Shown here piece after piece: positions 77 through 8,882 of a stretch of 8,882 nucleotides of DNA (positions are counted from its first letter, which is position 1; every line of letters begins with the position of its first letter). The position numbers and the translations under genes were made by a program. The DNA comes from Acetobacteraceae bacterium (GTDB taxonomy: Bacteria; Pseudomonadota; Alphaproteobacteria; Acetobacterales; Acetobacteraceae). The notes under the pieces are model-generated. The model did not search any database. It was not told where the DNA came from and was given only the letters and a program-made list of their open reading frames with translations. The stretch lies in contig CANJXD010000219.1 in NCBI GenBank assembly GCA_947478535.1, forward strand, positions 1-8,882, written 5' to 3'.

Positions 77-135
77 TCAGGACCGCAGGAATTCCAGCAT
101 GTCCTGGTTCAGCTGCTGCTTGTGCGTGTCCGCCA

Positions 136-421
136 GCCGATGGTGCGGGCGCGGGCCTCGGCCAGGGCAAATGGGGTCACCCTCGCCGGCGACGCCGCCG
201 GGATAGGCGTCCCCCTCATCGAGGAACAGGAACCGCGCCGTCATCGAGCGCAGCCCGACCGCGCTGTTGGCCCCGCTTAGCACCAGGATGCCGCCGGGGA
301 ATTCCTTCGACAGCATGGTGTTTCCGCTGTCGCGTGCGCGGGCCGGCGCGACCCGTTCCCGCAGGGCGGGCGTCTCCTCCAGCAGCGGGTCGATGCGCTG
401 GCGGCTGAACCGCTTGGCCAT
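136..421 (-). pseudogene. Phage terminase large subunit (GpA family), internal fragment with frameshift
   Basis: Read from 421 downward, the frame gives MAKRFSRQRIDPLLEETPAL, then SRDSGNT-like and KEFPGGILVLSGANSAVG segments, then LFLDEGDAYP and GEGDP. This is the characteristic ATPase core of GpA-type large terminases, the motor that packages DNA into proheads; the DE of LFLDE is the Walker B pair. Intact members are about 600 or more residues, so only about 95 remain, with neither end. After GEGDPI the homology continues in another frame as ALAEARARTIG, which one extra A in the run at 169-171 explains. The usual DEVDAYP reads DEGDAYP. Homology stops near 136; the original frame then runs to TGA 77-79 ending in LNQDMLEFLRS, which does not look like terminase. 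This is a dead remnant. A Nu1-like small-terminase remnant lies on the same strand at 1855-2436. Confidence 0.85.
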
Positions 422-657
422 CCGGATATTCAGGGCAGCGGGACCCGGAAAACCTAGCTGCGCTTGACCAGCCCATCGGTGACAACGCGCCGCTCGGCAT
501 GATCGTGAAGACAGGGAAACAGCACCCCAGTCCGACGCCGCTCGTGACGAAGTTCGTCGCCACGCTTCACGCCGGAGGTAAAGCGCGTTGCTACAGACCC
601 ACACCCTTGCGACGCGGCGGACTCTGGGCGAAAATACCGACAAGGCGCAGCCGGCCA
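422..657. other. Stretch without a recognisable gene
   Basis: Between the terminase scrap and the stop of the solute-binding protein no frame gives a recognisable family. One minus-strand frame is open from roughly 615 to a TAG near 448 and ends in ...RRVVTDGLVKRS, which has a plausible protein-like composition, but I cannot assign it and it has no clear start. No terminator hairpin or repeat is evident. Confidence 0.4.
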
Positions 658-1629
658 CTATTGGGGCGTCAGGCCTGCTGCCGCGGCGACGGAGTTCCAG
701 ATCGCCATCTCCGCCACCTTCTCACGCATATACGCCTCGCCTCCAGTGCGGTCGGGCGTGTAGCCTAGCTCGGCCAGGCGGCCTGCGATCGCAGGATTGA
801 AGATTGCCTCGGCAAACGCCGCGTGCAGCCGGTCAATCAGCGGTCGCGGCACGCCGACCGGCGCGAAAAGACCCCATTCCGAACCGGATGGGAAACCGGC
901 GTAGCCCTGCTCCTCGAAGGTCGGAACGTCCGGCAGCGCTGCATTGCGCCGCGGGCCGGTGACGCCGATCGCCAGAAGCTCGCCAGTCTGCACGAACGGC
1001 TTGCCGATGCTCGCCCCGTTGATGGTGAGTGTGATGTGACCGGTGATCGTGTCAGTGATCGGCATCATGCCACTGCGATAGAGGACGTGCTCCATGTCGA
1101 TGCCCGCGCGCCGCTTCAGGAGCTCGCCGAGCAGATAGGCGCCGGTGCTGCCGGTGCCGTAGCTGACGCTGCCTGGGCGCGCCTTCGCCTTCTCGATCAG
1201 CTCCACCAGGTTGCGCGCGCCGAAGTTGCGGTTGCCGTACAGAACAAACGACCCGTAAGCGGCGCGGATTACCGGCGTCACATCCGTCATGGGATCATAC
1301 GGCAGATTGGAGCGCGAGACCTTGTTGATGTGCACGCTGGAATCGCCGAATAGCAACGTGTAGCCGTCGGCTGGTGACCGCACCACGTACTCTGTGCCGA
1401 TGACCCCTTCGGCGCCAGCGCGATTCTCGACGATGATGGTGCCACCCAGCAGCTCGGCGGCCTTCGGCGCGATCAGCCTTACCAGGATATCGGTGCCGCC
1501 GCCGGGGGCGATGGGAACTACCACGCGGATCGGCCTGCTTGGATAGGATGGCTGGGCCAACGCTGGCCCTACCCGCGGCCCTGCTACGGCGCCAAGCAGC
1601 CCGCCGGCTACGACATGCCTTCGCTTCAT
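658..1629 (-). CDS. Bug/TctC-family periplasmic solute-binding protein
   Basis: A 323-residue protein of the tripartite-tricarboxylate-transporter (TTT) solute-binding family, normally about 320-330 residues, so full length. Residues 1-25 form a signal peptide with a double arginine (MKRRHVVAGG), a hydrophobic stretch and a likely cleavage after PALA. Family landmarks follow in order: PIRVVVPIAPGGGTDILVR (32-50), VENRAGAEGVIG (67-78), DGYTLLFG (88-95), YDPMTDVTPV (111-120), SYGTGSTG (156-163), PDVPTFEEQGY (233-243) and EWGLFAPVGVPRPLIDRL (251-268). Such proteins bind carboxylates or related small organic anions in the periplasm and pass them to a TctA/TctB membrane pair. No TctA or TctB is nearby, so this is an orphan, as most Bug proteins are. 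The ATG at 1629 is chosen over an upstream frame extension to 1746 because GGAAGGGG lies 7 bases before it and the signal peptide starts there. The ligand is unknown. Confidence 0.9.
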   Translation of the reverse strand: MKRRHVVAGGLLGAVAGPRVGPALAQPSYPSRPIRVVVPIAPGGGTDILVRLIAPKAAELLGGTIIVENRAGAEGVIGTEYVVRSPADGYTLLFGDSSVHINKVSRSNLPYDPMTDVTPVIRAAYGSFVLYGNRNFGARNLVELIEKAKARPGSVSYGTGSTGAYLLGELLKRRAGIDMEHVLYRSGMMPITDTITGHITLTINGASIGKPFVQTGELLAIGVTGPRRNAALPDVPTFEEQGYAGFPSGSEWGLFAPVGVPRPLIDRLHAAFAEAIFNPAIAGRLAELGYTPDRTGGEAYMREKVAEMAIWNSVAAAAGLTPQ

Positions 1630-1660
1630 AGCGTGACCCCTTCCAATGAGCGGAGCGGTC

Positions 1661-1688
1661 ATCATACATGCCATGCGGGTGCCGTCAC
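1661..1688 (-). promoter_or_regulatory. Possible sigma-70-type promoter of the solute-binding protein gene
   Basis: On the minus strand TATGAT (1666-1661) matches the -10 consensus at 5 of 6 bases. GTGACG (1688-1683), 16 bases upstream, matches the -35 consensus at 4 of 6. Transcription would begin near 1654, about 25 bases before the ATG at 1629, leaving room for the ribosome-binding site. The match is by eye only, and the -35 box is weak in a GC-rich background. Confidence 0.3.
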
Positions 1689-1854
1689 CGGCGATGATGC
1701 GGGTCTTCGCACGCCGGCCGCACCCCCGACGCCAGCGTCTGCTCATCCCCCCGCGTCGTACGCGTCACGCAGTTCTTTGGCGCCCAGACATTCGCCATGC
1801 GAACCAGCAGGAGTATCGAGACCTTCTGCGTGGACCAGCGCATCGCTCGTCTGA

Positions 1855-2436
1855 TCACGGCAGTGGAGACCGGTCCCCTCCCAGGCCTGCTGGATCGAAG
1901 CGATCGGCCGCCGCCGTCAGCAGGTCGTTGATGTGGCTCTGCAGGATGGTCTGCAGCAGATGCGGGTCGACGCTGATCTCGGCGGCGATCAGGCCGGAGA
2001 GGCGGGCCGGCCAGTTCGGCAGCGCGTCGCCCATGGTGCTGCCGATCTCATCGAGCGCGGCATTGGCCTCGGTGACGTCGAGCAGGCGGCGCTTGGTCTC
2101 GTCCAGCGAGAGCCGCTGCGCCTCCACCTTCAGGGCAAGCTGCGCCACCTTCAGCCGGGCGAAGGGCGTGCCCTCGGCGCCGGCGCCATTGGCCAGCGGC
2201 GAGCGCGAGGGATCGGCGGTCTCGGTCAGGCGGCGGCGGGTCTTGTCGATATCCCATTGGCCGTCCGGCTCGCGGGTAATCCGGCCGGCGTCGACGAGCA
2301 CCGGATTCACGAAGCCGAATTCGGCGATGGACGCCGCGATCTGCGCGACCTGGGACGGCGCGTGCGTGCGGGCATTCTCGGCATACGGGACCAGCCCCGC
2401 CACCGGCAGGCTGCTCACCACGAGATCAAGCTGCAT
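1855..2436 (-). CDS. Chimeric ParB-like N-terminus fused to Nu1-like terminase small subunit
   Basis: A 193-residue reading frame built from two phage genes. Residues 1-50 (MQLDLVVSSLPVAGLVPYAE..., then NARTHAPSQVAQIAASI and EFGFVNPVLVDA) are the beginning of a phage ParB/Srx-fold nuclease-like domain, cut before its GHGR motif. From residue 51 (GRITREPDGQWDIDK...) to the end it matches the terminase small-subunit/Nu1 type, which recognises packaging sites: the end of the helix-turn-helix, a middle part with basic and acidic runs (ALKVEAQRLSLDETKRRL), and the C-terminal region NWPARLSGLIAAE...LLQTILQSHINDLL. The first part of the Nu1 DNA-binding helix-turn-helix is missing. The start is set by GGAGGT eight bases before ATG 2436. 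It overlaps the tail of the preceding fragment by 11 bases. It is open and could be expressed, but both domains are incomplete, so it is probably non-functional. Confidence 0.7.
   Translation of the reverse strand: MQLDLVVSSLPVAGLVPYAENARTHAPSQVAQIAASIAEFGFVNPVLVDAGRITREPDGQWDIDKTRRRLTETADPSRSPLANGAGAEGTPFARLKVAQLALKVEAQRLSLDETKRRLLDVTEANAALDEIGSTMGDALPNWPARLSGLIAAEISVDPHLLQTILQSHINDLLTAAADRFDPAGLGGDRSPLP
2287..2382 (-). repeat. Direct repeat copy 1 (ParB-domain segment)
   Basis: A 96-bp segment aligned without gaps to 4043-4138, with about 11 mismatches (roughly 89% identity). Both encode AENARTH(A/S)PSQVAQIA and the following SIAEFGFVNPVLVDA on the minus strand. The copies are in the same orientation and flank the MFS carrier gene. 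The match ends at the point where this copy switches to Nu1-like sequence. Confidence 0.85.
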
Positions 2437-2545: not shown

Positions 2546-2619
2546 GCGTGTCAGGGCTTGCCGCGCGCGCCGCGGCGGCGTCAGATAAGCTTGGCCGGTC
2601 ACCGGCTGGAGAATGCGCC

Positions 2620-3900
2620 ATGCTTGCCTCGGTGCTCGCCCCGCGTCTCGCCCGCCACGGCATCCACTATGCGTGGGTGATGGTGGCGCTGACCTTCCTG
2701 GTCTCGATCTGCACCTCGGCCGCGGTCAGCCTGCCGGGTGTGCTCATCCTGCCGATGTCGCGCGAGCTCGGCTGGGGCCGCGGCGAGGTCTCCGGCGCCA
2801 TGGGGCTGATGTTCCTGCTGTTCGCGGTGACCGCGCCCTTCGCCGGGGCGCTGCTACTGCGCTACGGGCTGCGGCGGATGGTGGTCACCGGCACCGCGCT
2901 CGCCACGTTGTGCGTGCTGGGCGTGACCCGCACCACCGAGCCCTGGCATGTCTGGCTGGCCCTGGGCGTGCTGGGCCTGGCCGCGGGGATGATGGCGCTG
3001 GTGCTGTCGGCCACGGTCGTAAACCGCTGGTTCCAGGAACGGCGGGGGCTCGCCATGGGCATCCTGACGGCGGCCTTCGCGGCGGGGCAGCTCAGCTTCC
3101 TGCCGGCGGCGGCGGCGCTGGCGGAATCGCAGGGCTGGCGCGTCGCGGTGGCACCCGCCGTGGCCGGGCTCGGGCTCTGCGCGCTGCTCTATGTTCTGTT
3201 CGCGCGCGACTGGCCGGCGGACCTCGGGCTCGCGCCCTTCGGCGGGGTGGCGGTGGTACGGCCGGCGACGCCGCCGGCGGGCAACGCCGTGGCGTTCAGC
3301 CTTGGCGTCCTGGCCGAGGCCTCGGCGACGCGCGCGTTCTGGATCCTGGCCGGAACCTTCTTCATCTGCGGCCTGTCCTCGACCGGCATCGTCAGCCAGC
3401 ACTTCATCCCGTTCTGTGCGGACAACGGCGTCGGCGCGGTGACTGCGGCGTCGATCCTGGCGCTGATGGGCGTGTTCAACTTCGTGGGCACGGTCGGGTC
3501 CGGCTGGCTGACCGACCGCTACGACAACCGGATGCTCCTCGCGTGGTATTACGCGCTGCGCGGTATGTCTCTGGTCTGGCTGCCCTTCGGCAATTTCGAC
3601 ATGTTCGCGCTGACGCTCTGGGCCGTGTTCTTCGGGCTCGACTTCGTCGCCACGGTGCCGCCCACGGCGCGGCTCACGGCGCAGCATTTCGGGCCGGAGA
3701 AGGCGGCGGTGGTGTTCGGCTGGATCTTCGCGGCGCACCAGCTCGGCTCCGCCACCTCGGCGCTGTTCGCCGGCATCTGGCGCGACGCCGTAGCGACCTA
3801 CCTGCCGGCTTTCGTCACGGTGGGGCTGGCCAGCATCCTGGCCGCCGTGGTGGTGCTGGCGCTGCGGAACACGCGCGCGGCCCCGCCACGGCCCGCCTGA
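2620..3900 (+). CDS. MFS transporter, monocarboxylate/oxalate-formate porter type
   Basis: A 426-residue inner-membrane carrier of normal length with about 12 predicted transmembrane helices: roughly 16-40, 60-80, 86-102, 109-133, 145-167, 173-195, then a central loop, 239-262, 273-297, 304-323, 327-348, 362-385 and 394-415. The loop after helix 4 carries NRWFQERRGLAMGI, typical of the monocarboxylate porter/oxalate-formate antiporter branch. The MFS motif A equivalent GWLTDRYDNR (295-304) sits between helices 8 and 9. Such carriers move small mono- or dicarboxylates. The ATG at 2620 is preferred over the in-frame upstream start at 2548 because GGAG lies 8 bases before it and the extra 24 residues are alanine/arginine-rich with no helix. 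It is read against the surrounding phage remnants and is bracketed by two direct repeats. No defect is visible. The substrate is unknown; organic anion uptake is an inference from family and neighbours. Confidence 0.9.
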   Translation: MLASVLAPRLARHGIHYAWVMVALTFLVSICTSAAVSLPGVLILPMSRELGWGRGEVSGAMGLMFLLFAVTAPFAGALLLRYGLRRMVVTGTALATLCVLGVTRTTEPWHVWLALGVLGLAAGMMALVLSATVVNRWFQERRGLAMGILTAAFAAGQLSFLPAAAALAESQGWRVAVAPAVAGLGLCALLYVLFARDWPADLGLAPFGGVAVVRPATPPAGNAVAFSLGVLAEASATRAFWILAGTFFICGLSSTGIVSQHFIPFCADNGVGAVTAASILALMGVFNFVGTVGSGWLTDRYDNRMLLAWYYALRGMSLVWLPFGNFDMFALTLWAVFFGLDFVATVPPTARLTAQHFGPEKAAVVFGWIFAAHQLGSATSALFAGIWRDAVATYLPAFVTVGLASILAAVVVLALRNTRAAPPRPA

Positions 3901-4408
3901 GCGGTCTCAGGGCCCGGGGCCGTAGAGCCAGGGCACGCGCCTGTGCCGGGGAGAGGTGGCCGAGCCACAGCACCGGTACCGAGGCGAGGCCCCGCTGCTT
4001 TGCTGCCATGACGCGGCCATGGCCGGCGATCAGCACGCCCTGGGCATCGACCAGCACCGGATTCACGAAGCCGAACTCGGCGATGGAGGCCGCGATCTGC
4101 GCCACCTGGGACGGGGAGTGGGTCCGGGCGTTTTCGGCGCACTCGGTGCCGCGATGGACGCCCTTCGCCCGGCTGCGGAGCTTCATCAGCTCGGACCAGA
4201 TCTCCGCCTTGTGCGTCGGGGCCTTGTTGCCTGCGACGCTACTGAGGAACAGGCCGAATTCGTCGATCTGGAACAGCCGCGCGGGGTGCTGCTCCAGGGC
4301 GGACATCATGCCCCGACCGGAAGCGAGGCTTTCGCCACCGAGGTAGCGCTCTAGCTTCGCGAGATCGAAGCAACGCCGGCGCGCCTCCATGGTGCGGTCA
4401 TCACTCAA
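3815..4408 (-). pseudogene. Chimeric frame: DUF3987-like phage replication protein fragment fused to ParB-like domain
   Basis: The open frame runs from about 4408 to TGA near 3815, but only 4351-3923 is recognisable. Residues about 21-89 (YLGGESLASGRG, ALEQHPARLFQIDEFGLFL, HKAEIWSELMKLRSR, HRGTE) match the ATPase part of DUF3987-type phage/plasmid primase-helicase proteins, with IDEFG in the Walker B position. At residue 90-91 the sequence jumps into a ParB-like domain (AENARTHSPSQVAQIA...GVLIAGHGRVMAAKQRGL...LGHLSPAQARAL), which retains the GHGR motif missing from the other copy. The ParB start is cut at the same alanine-glutamate where the repeat ends. After residue about 162 the frame becomes arginine/proline-rich and merely antisense to the MFS gene end; in another frame VPWLYGPGP stops at 3909-3907. 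Parent proteins are several hundred residues, so this is a deletion product rather than a working gene. Start choice is uncertain (TTG 4408, ATG 4390). Confidence 0.7.
4043..4138 (-). repeat. Direct repeat copy 2 (ParB-domain segment)
   Basis: Partner of 2287-2382, same orientation, about 89% identical over 96 bp. One end (4138) coincides with the fusion point to DUF3987-like sequence. At the other end this copy continues into the normal ParB-like sequence with GHGR, whereas copy 1 diverges into Nu1. Offset between the copies is 1756 bp. Confidence 0.85.
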
Positions 4409-4487
4409 ACCTCGCGCTGATGATTTCGGTATATTGGCCGACCGGCCGCACCTGGAGGGCGCGGGGCTGGCGAAGCGTCTTCTGATG
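4401..4487 (-). other. Possible C-terminal end of an unidentified gene
   Basis: A minus-strand frame ends at TGA 4403-4401 with LRQPRALQVRPVGQYTEIIS then ARFE. The composition and the stop lying just ahead of the next frame resemble a genuine gene end, but I cannot name the family and there is no start. It meets the plus-strand BRO scrap near 4488, so a junction is likely there. Confidence 0.2.
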
Positions 4488-4490
4488 CTG

Positions 4491-4600
4491 CATGGCCTCG
4501 CCTACTCGCTCATCCTGACCAGCCGAAAGGAGGCGGCGCGTCGGTTCAAGAAGTGGGTTACGGCCGAGGTGCTGCCCGCGACGCGCCGCAATAGCGACGA
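4491..4600 (+). pseudogene. BRO-family phage antirepressor fragment
   Basis: In the frame through 4497-4589 the product reads LAYSLILTSRKEAARRFKKW followed by VTAEVLPATRR. This is the highly conserved end of the BRO-N domain (usual form: S-ESGLY-x-LI-x-x-SRK-x-EA-x-x-F-x-x-WV-x-x-EVLP-x-IR), found in phage antirepressors and regulators that bind DNA or relieve repression. Only about 31 residues survive of a domain of about 100 and a protein of 200 or more. Sequence before LAYS and after LPATRR does not match. The frame stays open to TGA 4854-4856, but that part looks like non-coding read-through. Unlike the other phage scraps it lies on the plus strand, as early regulatory genes often do relative to late genes. 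Confidence 0.7.
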
Positions 4601-4860
4601 CATGGTGGCAGTGGTGGGGGTGACGCGCTCGCGGCCATTCGGGAGTTCGTCGACCATACCAGTCGTTGCCCGCATCGCGGCGCGTAGGGCGGCCCAACCG
4701 CTGGCATGGTCTCGGATCGGGCTGGTGCAATCGGCCAAGATGTCCAGGCGGCAGGTCGCTGAGCCGTCAAGCCGGTCGGCTGCAGCCCGGCCCTGGCGCG
4801 CGGTCATCGAGGCCGCGAGAAGACGCGCGCGGAGGTGCTGGGCGATAGGCGCGTGAACAT
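4601..4860. other. Stretch without a recognisable gene between phage scrap and ABC operon
   Basis: No family can be named. A minus-strand frame (about 4800-4600) includes RLDILADCTSPIRDHASGWA and VDELPNGR, with protein-like composition. A short plus-strand frame near 4817-4860 reads EKTRAEVLGDRRVN. Both may be further deletion scraps. The left border of the operon sequence is at about 4861, where an in-frame TAG (4846-4848) precedes the first recognisable ATPase residues. Confidence 0.35.
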
Positions 4861-5082
4861 GGCTGGGACGCGCACCGCAAGACCGTGGTCTTCGTCACCC
4901 ACAGCCTGACCGAGGCGGTCTACCTCTGCGACGAGGTGGTGGTGCTGAGCGGCCGCCCCGGCCGCATCCTGGAGCGGATCGAGATCGACCTGCCGCGCCC
5001 CCGGACCTGGGAGGTGATGGCCGGCGAATCCTTCGGCCGGCTGCGGGAGAAGATCTGGAGCCTGATCCGGGTGCAGGCATGA
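4861..5082 (+). pseudogene. ABC importer ATPase (SsuB/TauB type), 5'-truncated
   Basis: Only the last 72 or so residues remain: WDAHRKTVVFVTHSLTEAVY, then LCDEVVVLSGRPGRI, then a C-terminal tail ending IRVQA. FVTHS carries the H-loop histidine, and VVVLS-x-RPGRI is typical of nitrate/sulfonate/taurine-type ATPases, which are about 250-270 residues and energise uptake at the cytoplasmic face. Walker A, Q-loop, signature (LSGGQ) and Walker B are all absent, and the frame is closed by TAG at 4846-4848, so the gene cannot make an active ATPase. A GTG at 4885 would give 65 residues without function. Its TGA overlaps the permease ATG (ATGA at 5079-5082), the normal coupling of such operons. The break lies just where phage-like scraps begin, so a deletion or rearrangement removed the 5' part, and probably an upstream binding-protein gene as well. 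Confidence 0.85.
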
Positions 5083-5843
5083 CGGCCGTCACCCTGCGCT
5101 GGGTGGTGCTGGCGGCCATCGTGCTGCTGTGGGAAGCGGCGCCGCGGCTCGGCTGGGTGCCGCCGGTGATCCTGGCCGCGCCGAGTGCCACGCTGGTGGC
5201 GGGCTTCGAGGATGCGGGCGTCTTCGCGCGCGCGCTGCTGTTCACGCTGGGCGAGATCGCCGCCGCGCTCACCATCGCCTATGGGCTGGGCGGCCTGGCA
5301 GGGGTGGTCATCGGCGCCTCGCCGCTGCTGCGCCGGGCGCTGCTGCCGCTGGTCTCCTCGGTCTACGCGATTCCCTTCGTGGTCATGTATCCCGTGATGA
5401 CCGCCTGGCTCGGCATCGGGCCGGCGAGCAAGGTGTGGTTCGCCGGCTTCTACGGCTTCTTCCCCGTCGTGCTTTCGGTCGCCGCCGGCGTACAGCTGGT
5501 GGACCGCAACCTGGTGCTGATGGCGCGCGCGGCCGGCGCGAACCGCACCCAGATGGCATTCGAGGTGCTGCTGCCCGCGGCGCTGCCGGCCATCATCTCC
5601 GGCCTGCGAATCGGCGGCGCGCTGACGACCATCGGCGTCGTCGTGGCGGAGATGCTGGCCGCGACCGATGGCATCGGTTTCCTCATCACCCAGAACCGCA
5701 CCATGTTCCGCACGCCCGAAGTCTATTTCGGCATCCTGCTCGTGCTGCTGCTCGCCGGCACGCTCGACACACTGATCGGGCGGCTGGAACGCCGGGCCGC
5801 GCGCTGGCGGCCGCTGCGCGAAGGAGAACGCTACAATGCCTAG
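5079..5843 (+). CDS. ABC transporter permease (SsuC/TauC type)
   Basis: A 254-residue integral membrane protein of usual family length. It has an N-terminal helix (about 8-22), core helices near 61-80, 88-107, 120-138, 180-193 and 214-235, and the cytoplasmic EAA coupling loop at 148-170 (MARAAGANRTQMAFEVLLPA, then ALP), where the permease docks on its ATPase. The family imports small anionic or aromatic compounds such as nitrate, sulfonates, taurine, phthalate or pyrimidine precursors, so the substrate is open. The start at 5079 overlaps the ATPase stop (ATGA), implying translational coupling. The 3' end overlaps the lyase gene by 8 bases. The gene itself shows no defect, but its ATPase partner here is truncated and no binding protein is in view, so it would need partners from elsewhere in the genome to work. 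Confidence 0.92.
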   Translation: MTAVTLRWVVLAAIVLLWEAAPRLGWVPPVILAAPSATLVAGFEDAGVFARALLFTLGEIAAALTIAYGLGGLAGVVIGASPLLRRALLPLVSSVYAIPFVVMYPVMTAWLGIGPASKVWFAGFYGFFPVVLSVAAGVQLVDRNLVLMARAAGANRTQMAFEVLLPAALPAIISGLRIGGALTTIGVVVAEMLAATDGIGFLITQNRTMFRTPEVYFGILLVLLLAGTLDTLIGRLERRAARWRPLREGERYNA

Positions 5844-6720
5844 CCCCGGACGCCGTTTGCGGTCCCTGATCGAGGCCGGCGGCACGCTGGTCGTGCCTGG
5901 CGGCGGCTCGCCGCTCGACCTGTTGCTGGCGGAACAGGCGGGCTTCACCGCCGGCTATGTCAGCGGTTATGCCACGGCGGCCCAGCGCTATGGCCTGCCG
6001 GACATCGGCCAGATCGCCTTCGCCGAGGTCGCGGACATGGTCCGCGCCACCACCGCGGTGGTCTCCATCCCGCTGATCGTCGATGCCGACACGGGCTATG
6101 GCGATGTCGCGAACGTCGCCCGCAGCGTGCGCGGGCTGGAAGCCGCCGGCGCGGCGGGCGTGCAGATCGAGGACCAGATGTGGCCCAAGCGCTGCGGCCA
6201 CATGGACGGCAAGATCGTCGAGCCGCGCGAGGTCGCGCTGCGCAAGCTGGGCGCCGCGCTAGCCTGCCGCCGCGACCCGGCCACCGTCATCGTCGCCCGC
6301 ACCGATGCGCGCGGCCCGCACGGGCTGGACGAGGCGCTGGAACGCTGCCGCCTGTTCAAGGCGGAAGGCGCCGACATCCTGTTCGTCGATGGCCCGCATT
6401 CGTCCGAGGAGCTGCGCATCATAGCGCGCGAGCTGCCCGGCCCGACCATGGCCAACATGTCGGAAACCGGGAAGACGCCGCTGCACAGCGCGGAGGAGCT
6501 GGGCGCGATGGGCTATGCGATCGCGCTGTTCCCCTCCTCGCTCGCGCGCATCACCATCGCCGCCGCGCGCGGCTTCCTGGCCGAGCTGCGCCGCAGCGGC
6601 GACAGCCGCGGCTGGCTGGACCGGATGGCCTCGCTTGAGGAGGCCAATGCCGCGGTCGGCCTCGATGCGATCCGCGATTTCGAGACCGCGATGCTGGAGC
6701 GTAACCGCCATGGCACATGA
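5836..6720 (+). CDS. Isocitrate lyase/PEP mutase superfamily C-C lyase (2,3-dimethylmalate or methylisocitrate lyase-like)
   Basis: A 294-residue cytoplasmic enzyme, full length for the PrpB/dimethylmalate-lyase branch (about 290-300). Visible motifs: PGGGSPLDLLLAEQAGFTAG (21-40), DADTGYGD (83-90) for Mg2+ binding, IEDQ (111-114), KRCGH (118-122) with the catalytic cysteine of true lyases (absent in PEP mutases), ARTDA (154-158) and MANMSE (205-210). It should cleave a 2-hydroxy, 3-substituted C4-type diacid by retro-aldol reaction to an oxo acid (pyruvate, glyoxylate or similar) plus a carboxylate. The ATG at 5836 overlaps the permease end; AGGAG (5822-5826) lies nine bases upstream. Its 3' end overlaps the next gene by 11 bases. 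With a LeuC/LeuD-type hydratase downstream it most resembles the dimethylmaleate hydratase-dimethylmalate lyase pair. The exact substrate is inferred, not shown. Oxaloacetate decarboxylase activity, found in some relatives, is an alternative. Confidence 0.88.
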   Translation: MPSPGRRLRSLIEAGGTLVVPGGGSPLDLLLAEQAGFTAGYVSGYATAAQRYGLPDIGQIAFAEVADMVRATTAVVSIPLIVDADTGYGDVANVARSVRGLEAAGAAGVQIEDQMWPKRCGHMDGKIVEPREVALRKLGAALACRRDPATVIVARTDARGPHGLDEALERCRLFKAEGADILFVDGPHSSEELRIIARELPGPTMANMSETGKTPLHSAEELGAMGYAIALFPSSLARITIAAARGFLAELRRSGDSRGWLDRMASLEEANAAVGLDAIRDFETAMLERNRHGT

Positions 6721-7642
6721 GTTCCTGCCGACCGGCCCGCAGGCGGTGGACCGCCTGCTGCAAGGCGCGGTCGACCTGCACCACCACGGCTTTCCCGAAT
6801 TCTCCTTTGACCACCCGACGCGGCTCGACGACGCCGCCGAACTGACCCATGCGCGCGCCGCGGGCATGGCAGGCATCGTGCTGAAATCGCACTTCTTCCC
6901 GACCACCACCGTCGCCTGGCGCCTGGGGCGGGAGGTGGAGGGGATCGCCGCCTTCCCGTCCATTACGCTCAACCCCTCGGCCGGCGGCTTCTCGCCCATC
7001 TGCCTGGAAGCCGCGGCGCGGCAGGGCGCGCGGGTGGTCTTCTTCCCGACCTGGGGCGCGGCCAACGACATCCGCCGCGGCGGCATCAGCCGCTACGTCG
7101 CGCGCTAGATCAAGTCCGCTGCCTCCCTGACGCCGGAAGGCGGGCTGACCGTGACCGATGCTGCCGGGCGGGTGCATGGCGAGGTCTCGGAGTGCCTCGC
7201 CATCGCCGCCGAATTCGGCATGCTGGTGGCCACCGGCCACGTCTCGCCGCGCGAAAGCCTGGCCCTGGTGGCGGAGGCCAAGCGTCTCGGCGTGCGGGAC
7301 GTGATGTTCCAGCACCCCGACAGCCACTCCATCGGCGCGACGCGCGAGGAGATCCGCGACCTGGCGGCGGCGGGCGCAATGGTGGAGTTCTGCGCGCTGG
7401 GCTTCCTGCCCGCCTTCCAGCGGCTCTCGATCCCCGACTGCCTCGCGATCATCGAGGAGGTGGGCGTGGACCGCGTGGTGCTGACGACGGACTGCTTCTT
7501 CGGCTGGATGCCGCCGGCGGCCGAATTGCTGCGCATCACCCTCGGCAGCCTGCTGTTCCACGGCATGGCGGAAGCCGATGCGGCGCGGCTGGTGCGGGAC
7601 AACCCGCGCCGCATGCTCGGGCTGCCGCTGGTGGAGGGCTGA
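6710..7642 (+). pseudogene. DUF6282 family metal-dependent hydrolase, interrupted by an in-frame TAG
   Basis: The frame ATG 6710 to TGA 7640-7642 encodes a 310-codon amidohydrolase-like TIM-barrel protein, close to normal DUF6282 length, but codon 133 is TAG (7106-7108). Before it: VDLHHHGFPE (21-30, N-terminal metal-binding histidines), AAGMAGIVLKSHFFPT (50-65, conserved lysine and histidine) and SITLNPSAGGFSP. After it: ATGHVSPRES, QHPDSHSIGA, a long acidic helix, and LTTDCFFGW, then a C-terminal DNPRRMLGLPL typical of the family. The flanking residues read ...RYVAR-stop-IKSAASL; one base change from CAG or another sense codon would create the TAG. No activity is established for DUF6282; a cyclic amide, lactone or amide hydrolysis is plausible from its fold. 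The start overlaps the lyase end by 11 bases, and the large hydratase subunit begins 3 bases after its stop. Without TAG suppression only a 132-residue fragment is made. Confidence 0.85.
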
Positions 7643-7645
7643 GCC

Positions 7646-8805
7646 ATGGCCGCGCTGACGATCACCGCCATCGGCACAGGCCGCCCCTTCGACCCCGACC
7701 GGATCGTACTGGTCGATGACCACTTCGCCCCCGCCAAGGACGTGGAGAGCGCCGAGGCGCTGCGTCACACGCGCCGCTTCGCGGAGGCGCATGGGATCCG
7801 CCACCACTACGGCCCCGGCCGCGGCGGCATCGAGCACACGCTGCTGGCCGAGATCGGCATGGTCGGCCACGGCGATATCGTCTTCGGCGCGGACAGCCAC
7901 ACCTGCACCGCCGGCGCCTTCAACGCGCTCGGCATCGGCTTCGGCTCCACCGACCTGGCCGGCGCGCTCGCGGCCGGCCGGCTCTGGCTGCGCATCCCCG
8001 CCAGCATACGGGTGCAGATGACCGGCGCGCCCGGGCGGCACGTCACGGGCAAGGATGTGATCCTGGAGGTGATCCGGCGCATCGGCTCGGACGGCGGCCT
8101 CGACGCCTCGCTGGAATTCGGCGGGCCGGGTGTCGCGGCGCTCGGCATGGATGAACGGATGGCGGTGGCGAACATGGCCGTCGAGGCTGGCGCCGATGCC
8201 TGCGTCTTCGAGGGCGACCAGCGGTCCTTCGACGACATGGCGGCGCGCGGGATGGTGCCGCGGGCGGCGGTCGCCGCCGATGCCGGCGCCGCGTATCGGG
8301 AGACGATCGCCCTCGACCTCGGCCAGTTGTCGCCGCTGGTGGCGCGGCCGCCCTCTCCGGCCAATGGTACCCCGGTGGGCGAGTTGCGGGGCACGCGCGT
8401 CGATCAGGTCTACATCGGCAATTGCTCCAACGGCACGCTGACCGACCTGCGCCAGGCGGCCGAGGTGCTGCGCGGGCGGAAGGTGGCGCCGCATGTGCGG
8501 CTGGTGGTGGTGCCGGCGACGCAGCGCATCTGGCGCGCGGCGCTGGCCGAGGGGCTGCTCGATGTGTTGGCGGAGGCGGGCGCCGCCGTCTCGACGCCGA
8601 CCTGCGGCGCCTGCTTCGGCGGGCATATGGGCATATGGGCATCCTGGCCGCCGGCGAGGTGGCGGTGGCGACCACGAACCGGAACTTCCGCGGCCGCATG
8701 GGGCATCCGGAGTCGGGCGTCTTTCTGGCCAATGCCTGGGTCGCCGCGGCGGCCGCGGTCTCGGGCGAGATCGTGCCGCCCGGCGACATCCTGGGGAATG
8801 GCTGA
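7646..8805 (+). pseudogene. Aconitase/LeuC-like hydratase large subunit, N-terminally short and frameshifted
   Basis: Large subunit of a [4Fe-4S] hydro-lyase (3-isopropylmalate, citraconate or dimethylmaleate hydratase type). ATG 7646 has GGAGGG seven bases upstream and starts MAALTITAIGTGRPFDPDRI. LeuC-type proteins have about 45-55 more residues before this point, including a conserved active-site segment, so the start seems joined to an interior codon. Then come DDHFAP (24-29), GRGGIEH (58-64), GADSHTCTAG (81-90), the cluster ligand motif IGNCSNG (257-263, Cys260) and PTCGACFGG (318-326, Cys320 and Cys323). A tandem duplication of GCATATGG (8623-8638) shifts the frame at residue about 329; without it the protein continues [20 protein letters not shown] and ends [13 protein letters not shown] at TGA 8803-8805. 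The shifted frame loses the substrate-binding NRNFRGR motif and stays open into the small subunit. The gene is probably inactive here. Confidence 0.85.
8623..8638 (+). repeat. 8-bp tandem duplication causing the LeuC-like frameshift
   Basis: GCATATGG occurs twice in tandem (8623-8630, 8631-8638) inside codons for GGHMG. Removing one unit restores the conserved reading frame [12 protein letters not shown]. This is the signature of replication slippage, or of an assembly or read error in a short repeat. Confidence 0.85.
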
Positions 8806-8882
8806 GATGCGCATCGAGGGCCGCGTCCATCGCTTTGGCGACCATGTGGACACCGACGTCATCATCCCCGGCCGCTACCTCA
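8798..8882 (+). CDS. LeuD-like hydratase small subunit (partial, runs off the right edge)
   Basis: ATG 8798 (or ATG 8807) opens a frame reading [20 protein letters not shown] then VIIPGRYL at the edge. [21 protein letters not shown] is the invariant N-terminal signature of the small (swivel-domain) subunit of LeuCD-type and related hydratases, which pairs with the large subunit at 7646-8805 to form the active site. The start overlaps the large-subunit stop (8803-8805), the usual coupling. With ATG 8798 there is little room for a ribosome-binding site; ATG 8807 has GGGG ten bases upstream, so either may be used. Because of the upstream 8-bp duplication, this frame is also continuous with the large-subunit frame. 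The true protein would be about 160-200 residues; only 28 are visible. Confidence 0.88.

What the first reader, a model, noticed from the sequence alone, without database searches (positions are those of the whole stretch)
5079..8882. Candidate undescribed degradation pathway: hydrolase, aconitase-type hydratase and C-C lyase with a dedicated importer
Established precedent: dimethylmaleate hydratase (an aconitase-family two-subunit enzyme) makes 2,3-dimethylmalate, which an ICL/PEPM-superfamily lyase splits into pyruvate and propionate in nicotinate fermentation. The same enzyme pair is encoded here in order with a DUF6282 hydrolase and an SsuC-type permease. I infer that a transported cyclic or amide precursor is opened by DUF6282 to an unsaturated diacid (maleate, citraconate or alkylmaleate type), hydrated, then cleaved. 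DUF6282 has no described reaction known to me, so intact versions of this operon in relatives could assign it one.
Basis: inference. Interest (0 to 1): 0.7.

Follow-up and report, generated by a model that had tools for sequence, protein, structure and literature searches.

The report
Broken copy of conserved degradation operon
This stretch of bacterial DNA is a decaying copy of a conserved but unassigned set of genes that appears to import a small compound, convert it to an organic acid and split it into usable pieces; intact copies in other bacteria could reveal what an unassigned enzyme family does.

Summary
The gene order is real: ATPase tail, permease, isocitrate-lyase-type lyase, DUF6282, LeuC, start of LeuD. 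The window copy is damaged: ATPase mostly missing, a stop inside DUF6282, and LeuC lacking 41 N-terminal codons and frame-shifted by an 8-base tandem repeat. Each enzyme has an intact relative at 97-99% identity. Xanthobacter tagetidis has the whole set with a complete importer. DUF6282 is predicted to be an amidohydrolase-superfamily barrel. Against a strict reading: other DUF6282 genes sampled mostly lack these neighbours, the nearby LeuC is of two types about 30% identical, and sister lyases pair with DUF427. Unexpectedly, a related lyase clade sits in LeuC-LeuD-lyase-HyuB-HyuA operons, where HyuAB, a family that includes cyclic-amide hydrolases, stands in for DUF6282. A module of hydrolase, hydratase and C-C lyase is supported; the substrate, and an unsaturated diacid as DUF6282's product, remain inference.

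The parts
4864..5076 (+). C-terminal remnant of an ABC transporter ATPase; the rest is missing, upstream DNA carries phage-gene fragments
   Evidence: Reads KTVVFVTHSLTEAVYLCDEVVVLSGRPGRI...; 69-78% identical to the ATPase C-terminus in seven loci with the importer (L001, L003, L006, L008, L009, L011, L012)
5079..5843 (+). ABC importer permease, intact frame
   Evidence: PF00528, 79.3 bits; nearest NCBIfam models SaoP, TauC and SsuC, all under their cut-offs
5836..6720 (+). ICL/PEP-mutase superfamily C-C lyase, intact frame, motif WPKRCGH
   Evidence: PF13714 133.5 bits; best solved relative petal death protein 1zlp; clade of DUF6282-linked lyases
6710..7642 (+). DUF6282 (amidohydrolase-superfamily) gene, interrupted by TAG at 7106-7108
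   Evidence: PF19799 on both sides of the stop; uninterrupted 98% relative P0001, whose model has pLDDT 90 and an amidohydrolase-superfamily fold
7646..8805 (+). LeuC/homoaconitase-type hydratase large subunit, pseudogene: 41 N-terminal codons missing, frame shifted by a tandem 8-base repeat at about 8626-8642
   Evidence: PF00330; NF001614 397 bits; alignment with P0242; sequence
8807..8882 (+). Start of LeuD-type small subunit ([25 protein letters not shown]), cut by window end
   Evidence: Sequence, by likeness to the LeuD of L011, which follows LeuC there and matches TIGR02087 LeuD/DmdB family, 190.9 bits; the 25 window residues themselves were not scanned

Best explanation
The window holds the damaged 3' part of a catabolic operon: solute-binding protein, permease, ATPase, permease, lyase, DUF6282, LeuC, LeuD. 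In intact relatives the importer most likely brings in a small ring compound or ester-like acid. DUF6282, a probably metal-dependent amidohydrolase-superfamily enzyme, most likely hydrolyses it to a carboxylic acid. The LeuCD pair hydrates or isomerises that acid to an alkylmalate-type 2-hydroxydiacid, and the lyase splits it into a 2-oxoacid (pyruvate or glyoxylate) and a smaller carboxylate. Shown: gene order, families, conservation, predicted fold, catalytic motifs and lesions. Inferred: the reaction order, hydrolysis as the DUF6282 reaction, and the class of substrate. The window copy itself is very probably no longer functional.
Against: No substrate evidence at all. The LeuC in six of the seven genomes is 29-34% identical to that of L011, the window type, so the hydratase may act on different compounds. 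Of 13 readable close DUF6282 loci, 5 have no lyase next to them. Of 19 distant places in the class none has the lyase or LeuC nearby. DUF6282-LeuC contig coincidences, 3, are within the range of the jitter control (mean 0.8, maximum 6). Window-type LeuC is listed for many Roseomonas; for two named taxa DUF6282 and LeuC hits are on contigs of different length (P0016/P0328, P0017/P0282). Between petal death protein (213 bits) and 2,3-dimethylmalate lyase (138 bits) come chains named carboxyphosphonate mutase (195) and methylisocitrate lyase (171 and less). The superfamily also has decarboxylases and hydratases.
Confidence: 0.45

Rival explanations
1. DUF6282 is a lactonase in a hydroxy-acid (saccharinic-acid-like) or sulfonate-like pathway: it opens a hydroxylactone, a sulfopropanediol-dehydrogenase-like enzyme and a 3-hydroxyacid dehydrogenase oxidise the product to a malate-type acid, and LeuCD and the lyase finish it.
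For: In L006, L008 and L012 the operon is preceded by LeuC, LeuD, a 3HCDH-family enzyme, a histidinol-dehydrogenase-family enzyme and a LacI-type regulator. In L008 the histidinol-dehydrogenase-family enzyme is nearest to sulfopropanediol 3-dehydrogenase, 402 bits against 265 for histidinol dehydrogenase; family matches also in L001 (cut at the locus edge) and L105. The importer resembles sulfonate importers. Lactonases are among the nearest folds.
Against: No match to the histidinol-dehydrogenase profile in the L011 stretch; SsuA-family cut-off not reached. A sulfur-cleaving gene was not specifically searched for.
Confidence: 0.25
2. DUF6282 is a non-hydrolytic amidohydrolase-superfamily enzyme (decarboxylase or hydratase) that acts after, not before, the lyase/hydratase steps.
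For: 2,6-dihydroxybenzoate decarboxylase is among the Foldseek matches; distant DUF6282 genes sit with MmgE/PrpD, and in two loci also with ICL.
Against: The best structural matches in the second look are named as hydrolases; fold alone shows no function.
Confidence: 0.15
3. No single pathway: lyase plus DUF6282 plus importer form one unit, and LeuCD paralogues are independent neighbours.
For: LeuC near the operon is of two types, and in L009 lies on the other strand beside a GntR gene; lyase sisters without LeuCD.
Against: Extra LeuC-type gene within 10 kb in 7 of 7 genomes, where roughly 0.02 per genome would be expected at random (my estimate from 3 to 7 family members in 3.4 to 7.1 Mb; the genomes are partly related).
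Confidence: 0.15

Closest known systems
Dimethylmaleate hydratase and 2,3-dimethylmalate lyase of nicotinate fermentation (recalled)
   Same: Aconitase-family two-subunit hydratase plus ICL/PEPM-superfamily lyase; that pathway also has an amidohydrolase-superfamily ring opener (enamidase, recalled)
   Different: Here DUF6282 and an ABC importer; other nicotinate-pathway genes were not specifically searched for; substrate untested
Petal death protein (1zlp)
   Same: Best solved relative of the window lyase; shares WPKxCGHM
   Different: Plant protein on a long branch outside the DUF6282-linked clade; its alkylmalate substrates are recalled
Methylcitrate cycle (PrpB/PrpD/AcnD)
   Same: Hydratase plus ICL-type lyase logic; some distant DUF6282 genes sit with MmgE/PrpD
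   Different: Window lyase 263 bits against prpB cut-off 354
LeuC-LeuD-lyase-HyuB-HyuA operons found here (L101, L116, L118, L119, L121, L125)
   Same: LeuCD plus related lyase plus a hydrolase-type family
   Different: HyuAB (hydantoinase/caprolactamase-type) in place of DUF6282; separate lyase clade

Membership tests
DUF6282 (PF19799) | Pfam gathering score 26.8 | tested here: met
   105.9 and 80.7 bits for the two pieces
Amidohydrolase superfamily | (beta/alpha)8 barrel like known members | tested here: met
Amidohydrolase superfamily | HxH ... H ... H ... D metal ligands (recalled pattern) | tested here: met
   H24, H26, H177, H202, D261 conserved in 117-119 of 120 homologues and in 54-56 of 56 loci-derived sequences; metal binding itself not tested
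Amidohydrolase superfamily | Metal-dependent hydrolysis | not testable with these tools
   Needs assay
ICL/PEPM superfamily lyase | Domain match and K-[KR]-C-G-H active-site motif (motif recalled) | tested here: met
   PF13714 133.5 bits; WPKRCGH
Methylisocitrate lyase PrpB | NCBIfam TIGR02317 cut-off 354.4 | tested here: not met
   263 bits
2,3-dimethylmalate lyase | Cleavage of 2,3-dimethylmalate | not testable with these tools
   Sequence relation only: 3fa3, 138 bits, behind petal death protein (213 bits) and several methylisocitrate lyases
Aconitase/3-isopropylmalate dehydratase large subunit family (NF001614) | NCBIfam cut-off 385 | tested here: met
   397.4 bits for the damaged fragment; 520.5 bits for intact L011
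Canonical LeuC (TIGR00170) | cut-off 560.25 | tested here: not met
   172 bits window fragment, 198 bits L011; met by the other operon type in L008, 616 bits
Aliphatic sulfonate/taurine importer (SsuC/TauC/SsuA) | NCBIfam cut-offs | tested here: not met
   SsuC 95.4 of 347, TauC 103.6 of 342; SsuA_fam 127.1 of 163.5 for the L011 solute-binding protein
HyuAB-LeuCD-lyase operon | HyuA and HyuB next to the lyase | tested here: not met
   No HyuA or HyuB profile match in L001-L027 and L105; the window itself was not scanned with these profiles, but the genes beside its lyase are the permease and DUF6282

The most novel reading that the evidence does not exclude
DUF6282 and HyuAB are interchangeable ring openers feeding one widespread, undescribed hydratase-lyase module that degrades alkyl-substituted cyclic imides or lactones, for example the dialkylmaleimides left by chlorophyll and heme breakdown. 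The opened dialkylmaleate would be hydrated by LeuCD and cut by a petal-death-protein-like lyase to pyruvate or another 2-oxoacid plus a short acid.
Probability: 0.06. Interest if true: 0.8.

Novelty: new variant of a known kind. Interest (0 to 1): 0.5.

Why it matters
DUF6282 is a Pfam family of unknown function, and no paper in the searched library holds its name. A conserved operon with its own solute-binding protein in named isolates (Xanthobacter tagetidis, Fodinicurvata fenggangensis, Caballeronia telluris) gives a direct way to assign its reaction. The parallel HyuAB operons suggest a general module in which different front enzymes are swapped ahead of a shared hydratase-lyase pair.

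Tried and rejected
Window's own genome: none held. Plasmids: the lyase (443 records) and DUF6282 (45 records) gave only matches under 60% identity. Search of solved structures with the DUF6282 alignment gave only weak hits, best to phosphotriesterase homology protein (E 0.006), hence the fold search. One search covered the L011 LeuC in a wrong frame and found nothing; that is no result. In one search two queries (the L011 LeuD and LeuC) were mis-framed; LeuD was searched again with right coordinates. Riboflavin catabolism was checked as a hydrolysis-hydration-retroaldol precedent (PMC12746152, passages only): analogous chemistry, the string DUF does not occur in its main text. PMC7609661 (passages) was used only for titles of cited papers on petal death protein and dimethylmalate lyase. 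Paper searches, listings only: DUF6282 (0 papers), dimethylmalate lyase (7), petal death protein (4), citraconate terms (0), Hyu plus LeuCD plus lyase (0), dimethylmaleate/nicotinate/amidohydrolase (85, 20 listed), maleimide terms (583, 15 listed), sulfopropanediol terms (35, 20 listed). No listed title or abstract start describes these operons; the unlisted ones were not seen. I looked for an Acetobacteraceae genome with the LeuC of an intact relative in 65 genomes: 4 matched at E 1e-90 or better, none over 44% identity. The close-subfamily loci L004, L005 and L007 have other kinds of genes around DUF6282 (ten proteins from several loci scanned).
Full report
What is in the window. Searches confirm, in order on the + strand: the tail of an ABC ATPase (4864-5076), a permease (5079-5843), an ICL/PEP-mutase-superfamily lyase (5836-6720), DUF6282 (6710-7642), an aconitase-family large subunit (7646-8805) and the first 25 codons of a LeuD-type small subunit (from 8807, read by eye against L011). 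The genes overlap or nearly abut, as in an operon.

The window copy is decayed. The ATPase lacks about 200 residues (the one in L008 has 271); in front of it lie fragments of phage genes (terminase large and small subunit, ParB-like, antirepressor). DUF6282 is interrupted by TAG at 7106-7108. The LeuC-like gene lacks 41 codons after its seventh, compared with P0242 (97% identical, 424 residues), and its frame is shifted by an 8-base tandem repeat near 8626-8642. Uninterrupted near relatives are listed: DUF6282 P0001 98%, lyase P0121 99%, LeuC P0242 97%. Assembly error cannot be excluded for any single lesion; four together argue for real decay.

Intact operons. One scan of named genomes, with a single motif pattern and so incomplete, gave 27 loci with DUF6282; later searches added L105 from genome G717. 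Of these 28, 14 belong to the close subfamily (profile score over 500, or split over two frames in L019). L010 starts just before the gene and cannot be judged. Of the 13 others, 8 have the lyase directly upstream (L001, L006, L008, L009, L011, L012, L019, L105); 7 of these show solute-binding protein and ATPase too, and L019 starts inside the permease. L003 has the importer without the lyase. L002, L004, L005 and L007 have neither in the DNA held (for L007 only 1.2 kb upstream). L011 (Xanthobacter tagetidis) carries solute-binding protein, permease, ATPase, permease, lyase, DUF6282, LeuC, LeuD in one run, with LeuC 64% identical to the window's.

The hydratase. I tested the genomes of seven of the eight lyase-bearing loci (not L019, whose contig is short). 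In 7 of 7 a LeuC-type gene lies within 10 kb of DUF6282 (0.3 to 9.4 kb), and each genome has another LeuC-sized aconitase-family gene with a higher score elsewhere. Only L011 has the window type; the other six are 29-34% identical to it and 48-94% identical to one another; of these L008 was scanned and reaches the canonical LeuC cut-off. So the hydration step recurs but the enzyme was recruited at least twice. Exact contig-length coincidences among the listed metagenome hits (119 DUF6282, 118 lyase, 118 LeuC values) are 8 for DUF6282 and lyase (jittered mean 1.0, maximum 6), 5 for lyase and LeuC (mean 0.7, maximum 4) and 3 for DUF6282 and LeuC (mean 0.8, maximum 6, so not clear on its own). 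One length, 114911, appears in all three lists. Short lengths can coincide by chance.

Results against a universal link. In the class of X. tagetidis 18 of 385 genomes have DUF6282, at 20 places. Apart from X. tagetidis itself, none of the 19 other places shows the lyase or LeuC in the DNA fetched; two show MmgE/PrpD (L055, L064), and several contigs are short. In the order of Caballeronia telluris 10 of 300 genomes match; of the nine besides C. telluris, at 28-37% identity, none has the lyase and four have a TctC-type binding protein. Of the 14 distant loci, two have the lyase (L017, L021), one LeuC (L014), and five MmgE/PrpD (L013, L014, L016, L017, L021). DUF6282 as a family thus often sits among organic-acid genes but with changing partners. 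For two named taxa DUF6282 and window-type LeuC hits are on contigs of different length (P0016/P0328, P0017/P0282).

The lyase family. In the same 385 genomes (at most six candidates scored in each) five have a lyase at 55-64% identity, then 48% or less. Besides X. tagetidis, the four others (L097-L100) all have a DUF427 gene directly beside the lyase and no match to the DUF6282, LeuC, LeuD, ATPase or binding-protein profiles. More distant lyases often sit in operons with LeuC and LeuD: 9 of 19 loci fetched (L101-L104, L115-L129), 6 of these 9 with HyuB and HyuA (L101, L116, L118, L119, L121, L125). L122 and L124 have LeuC a few kb away. Four of the 19 (L115-L118) had been picked because LeuC was found there, and the rest by hand, so 9 of 19 is no unbiased rate. 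A tree of 43 lyases gives a clade of 16 (97/95) with the window, the eight DUF6282 loci and seven database relatives, joined to the four DUF427-linked ones (100/99), and a separate clade of 10 (100/100), of which 8 have LeuCD and 6 HyuAB. The motif PK[RK]CGH is present in 40 of 41 session-derived lyases; the exception is L117, a long branch. Petal death protein is the best solved relative (213 bits), ahead of a chain named carboxyphosphonate mutase (195), methylisocitrate lyases (171 and less) and 2,3-dimethylmalate lyase (138). [quoted passage not shown] substrate details are recalled.

Mechanism. Most likely: import, hydrolysis by DUF6282, hydration or isomerisation by LeuCD, C-C cleavage by the lyase. 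Families and order of genes are shown; the direction of flow and the substrate are inferred. The HyuAB operons are the best circumstantial support for a ring opener in front, because that family includes caprolactamase (L101 HyuA matches NF050156 with 531 bits, below its cut-off of 1000, and acetophenone carboxylase models less well). In contrast, the sulfopropanediol-dehydrogenase-like gene beside L008 and the sulfonate-type importer point to hydroxy acids, lactones or sulfonates.

Verdict. The pathway remains unassigned. I rate it a new variant of the known hydratase-plus-lyase scheme with moderate interest.

Noticed in passing
L097, L098, L099, L100: A sister clade of the window lyase is encoded directly beside a DUF427 (PF04248, two stretches) protein in 4 of 4 genomes, without DUF6282, LeuCD or importer matches.
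   Followed up: partly
L101, L116, L118, L119, L121, L125: Alphaproteobacterial operons LeuC-LeuD-lyase-HyuB-HyuA, apparently a second use of the hydratase-lyase pair with a hydantoinase/caprolactamase-type enzyme.
   Followed up: partly
window 80-658, 1858-2487, 3818-4408, 4389-4853: Truncated and chimeric phage genes (terminase large and small subunit, ParB-like joined to other fragments, antirepressor) in front of the operon.
   Followed up: partly
window 2287-2382 and 4043-4138: Direct repeat of 96 bases (89% identical) inside two ParB-like fragments, flanking an open MFS transporter frame (2548-3900) that is nearest to L-lactate and oxalate/formate transporters but under their cut-offs.
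   Followed up: no
L013, L014, L016, L017, L021: Distant DUF6282 genes lie near MmgE/PrpD genes, in L014 also a UGSC-family protein.
   Followed up: no
L003:5861-7842: Importer plus DUF6282 followed by a hydantoin/allantoin-racemase-like gene, with no lyase.
   Followed up: partly
L015, L018, L020: Tandem DUF6282 pairs in Nitrospinota, in L015 next to an alanine-racemase/D-serine-dehydratase-like gene and a small 4Fe-4S protein.
   Followed up: no
window 661-1746, - strand: TctC-type solute-binding protein in an open frame, not part of the operon.
   Followed up: no
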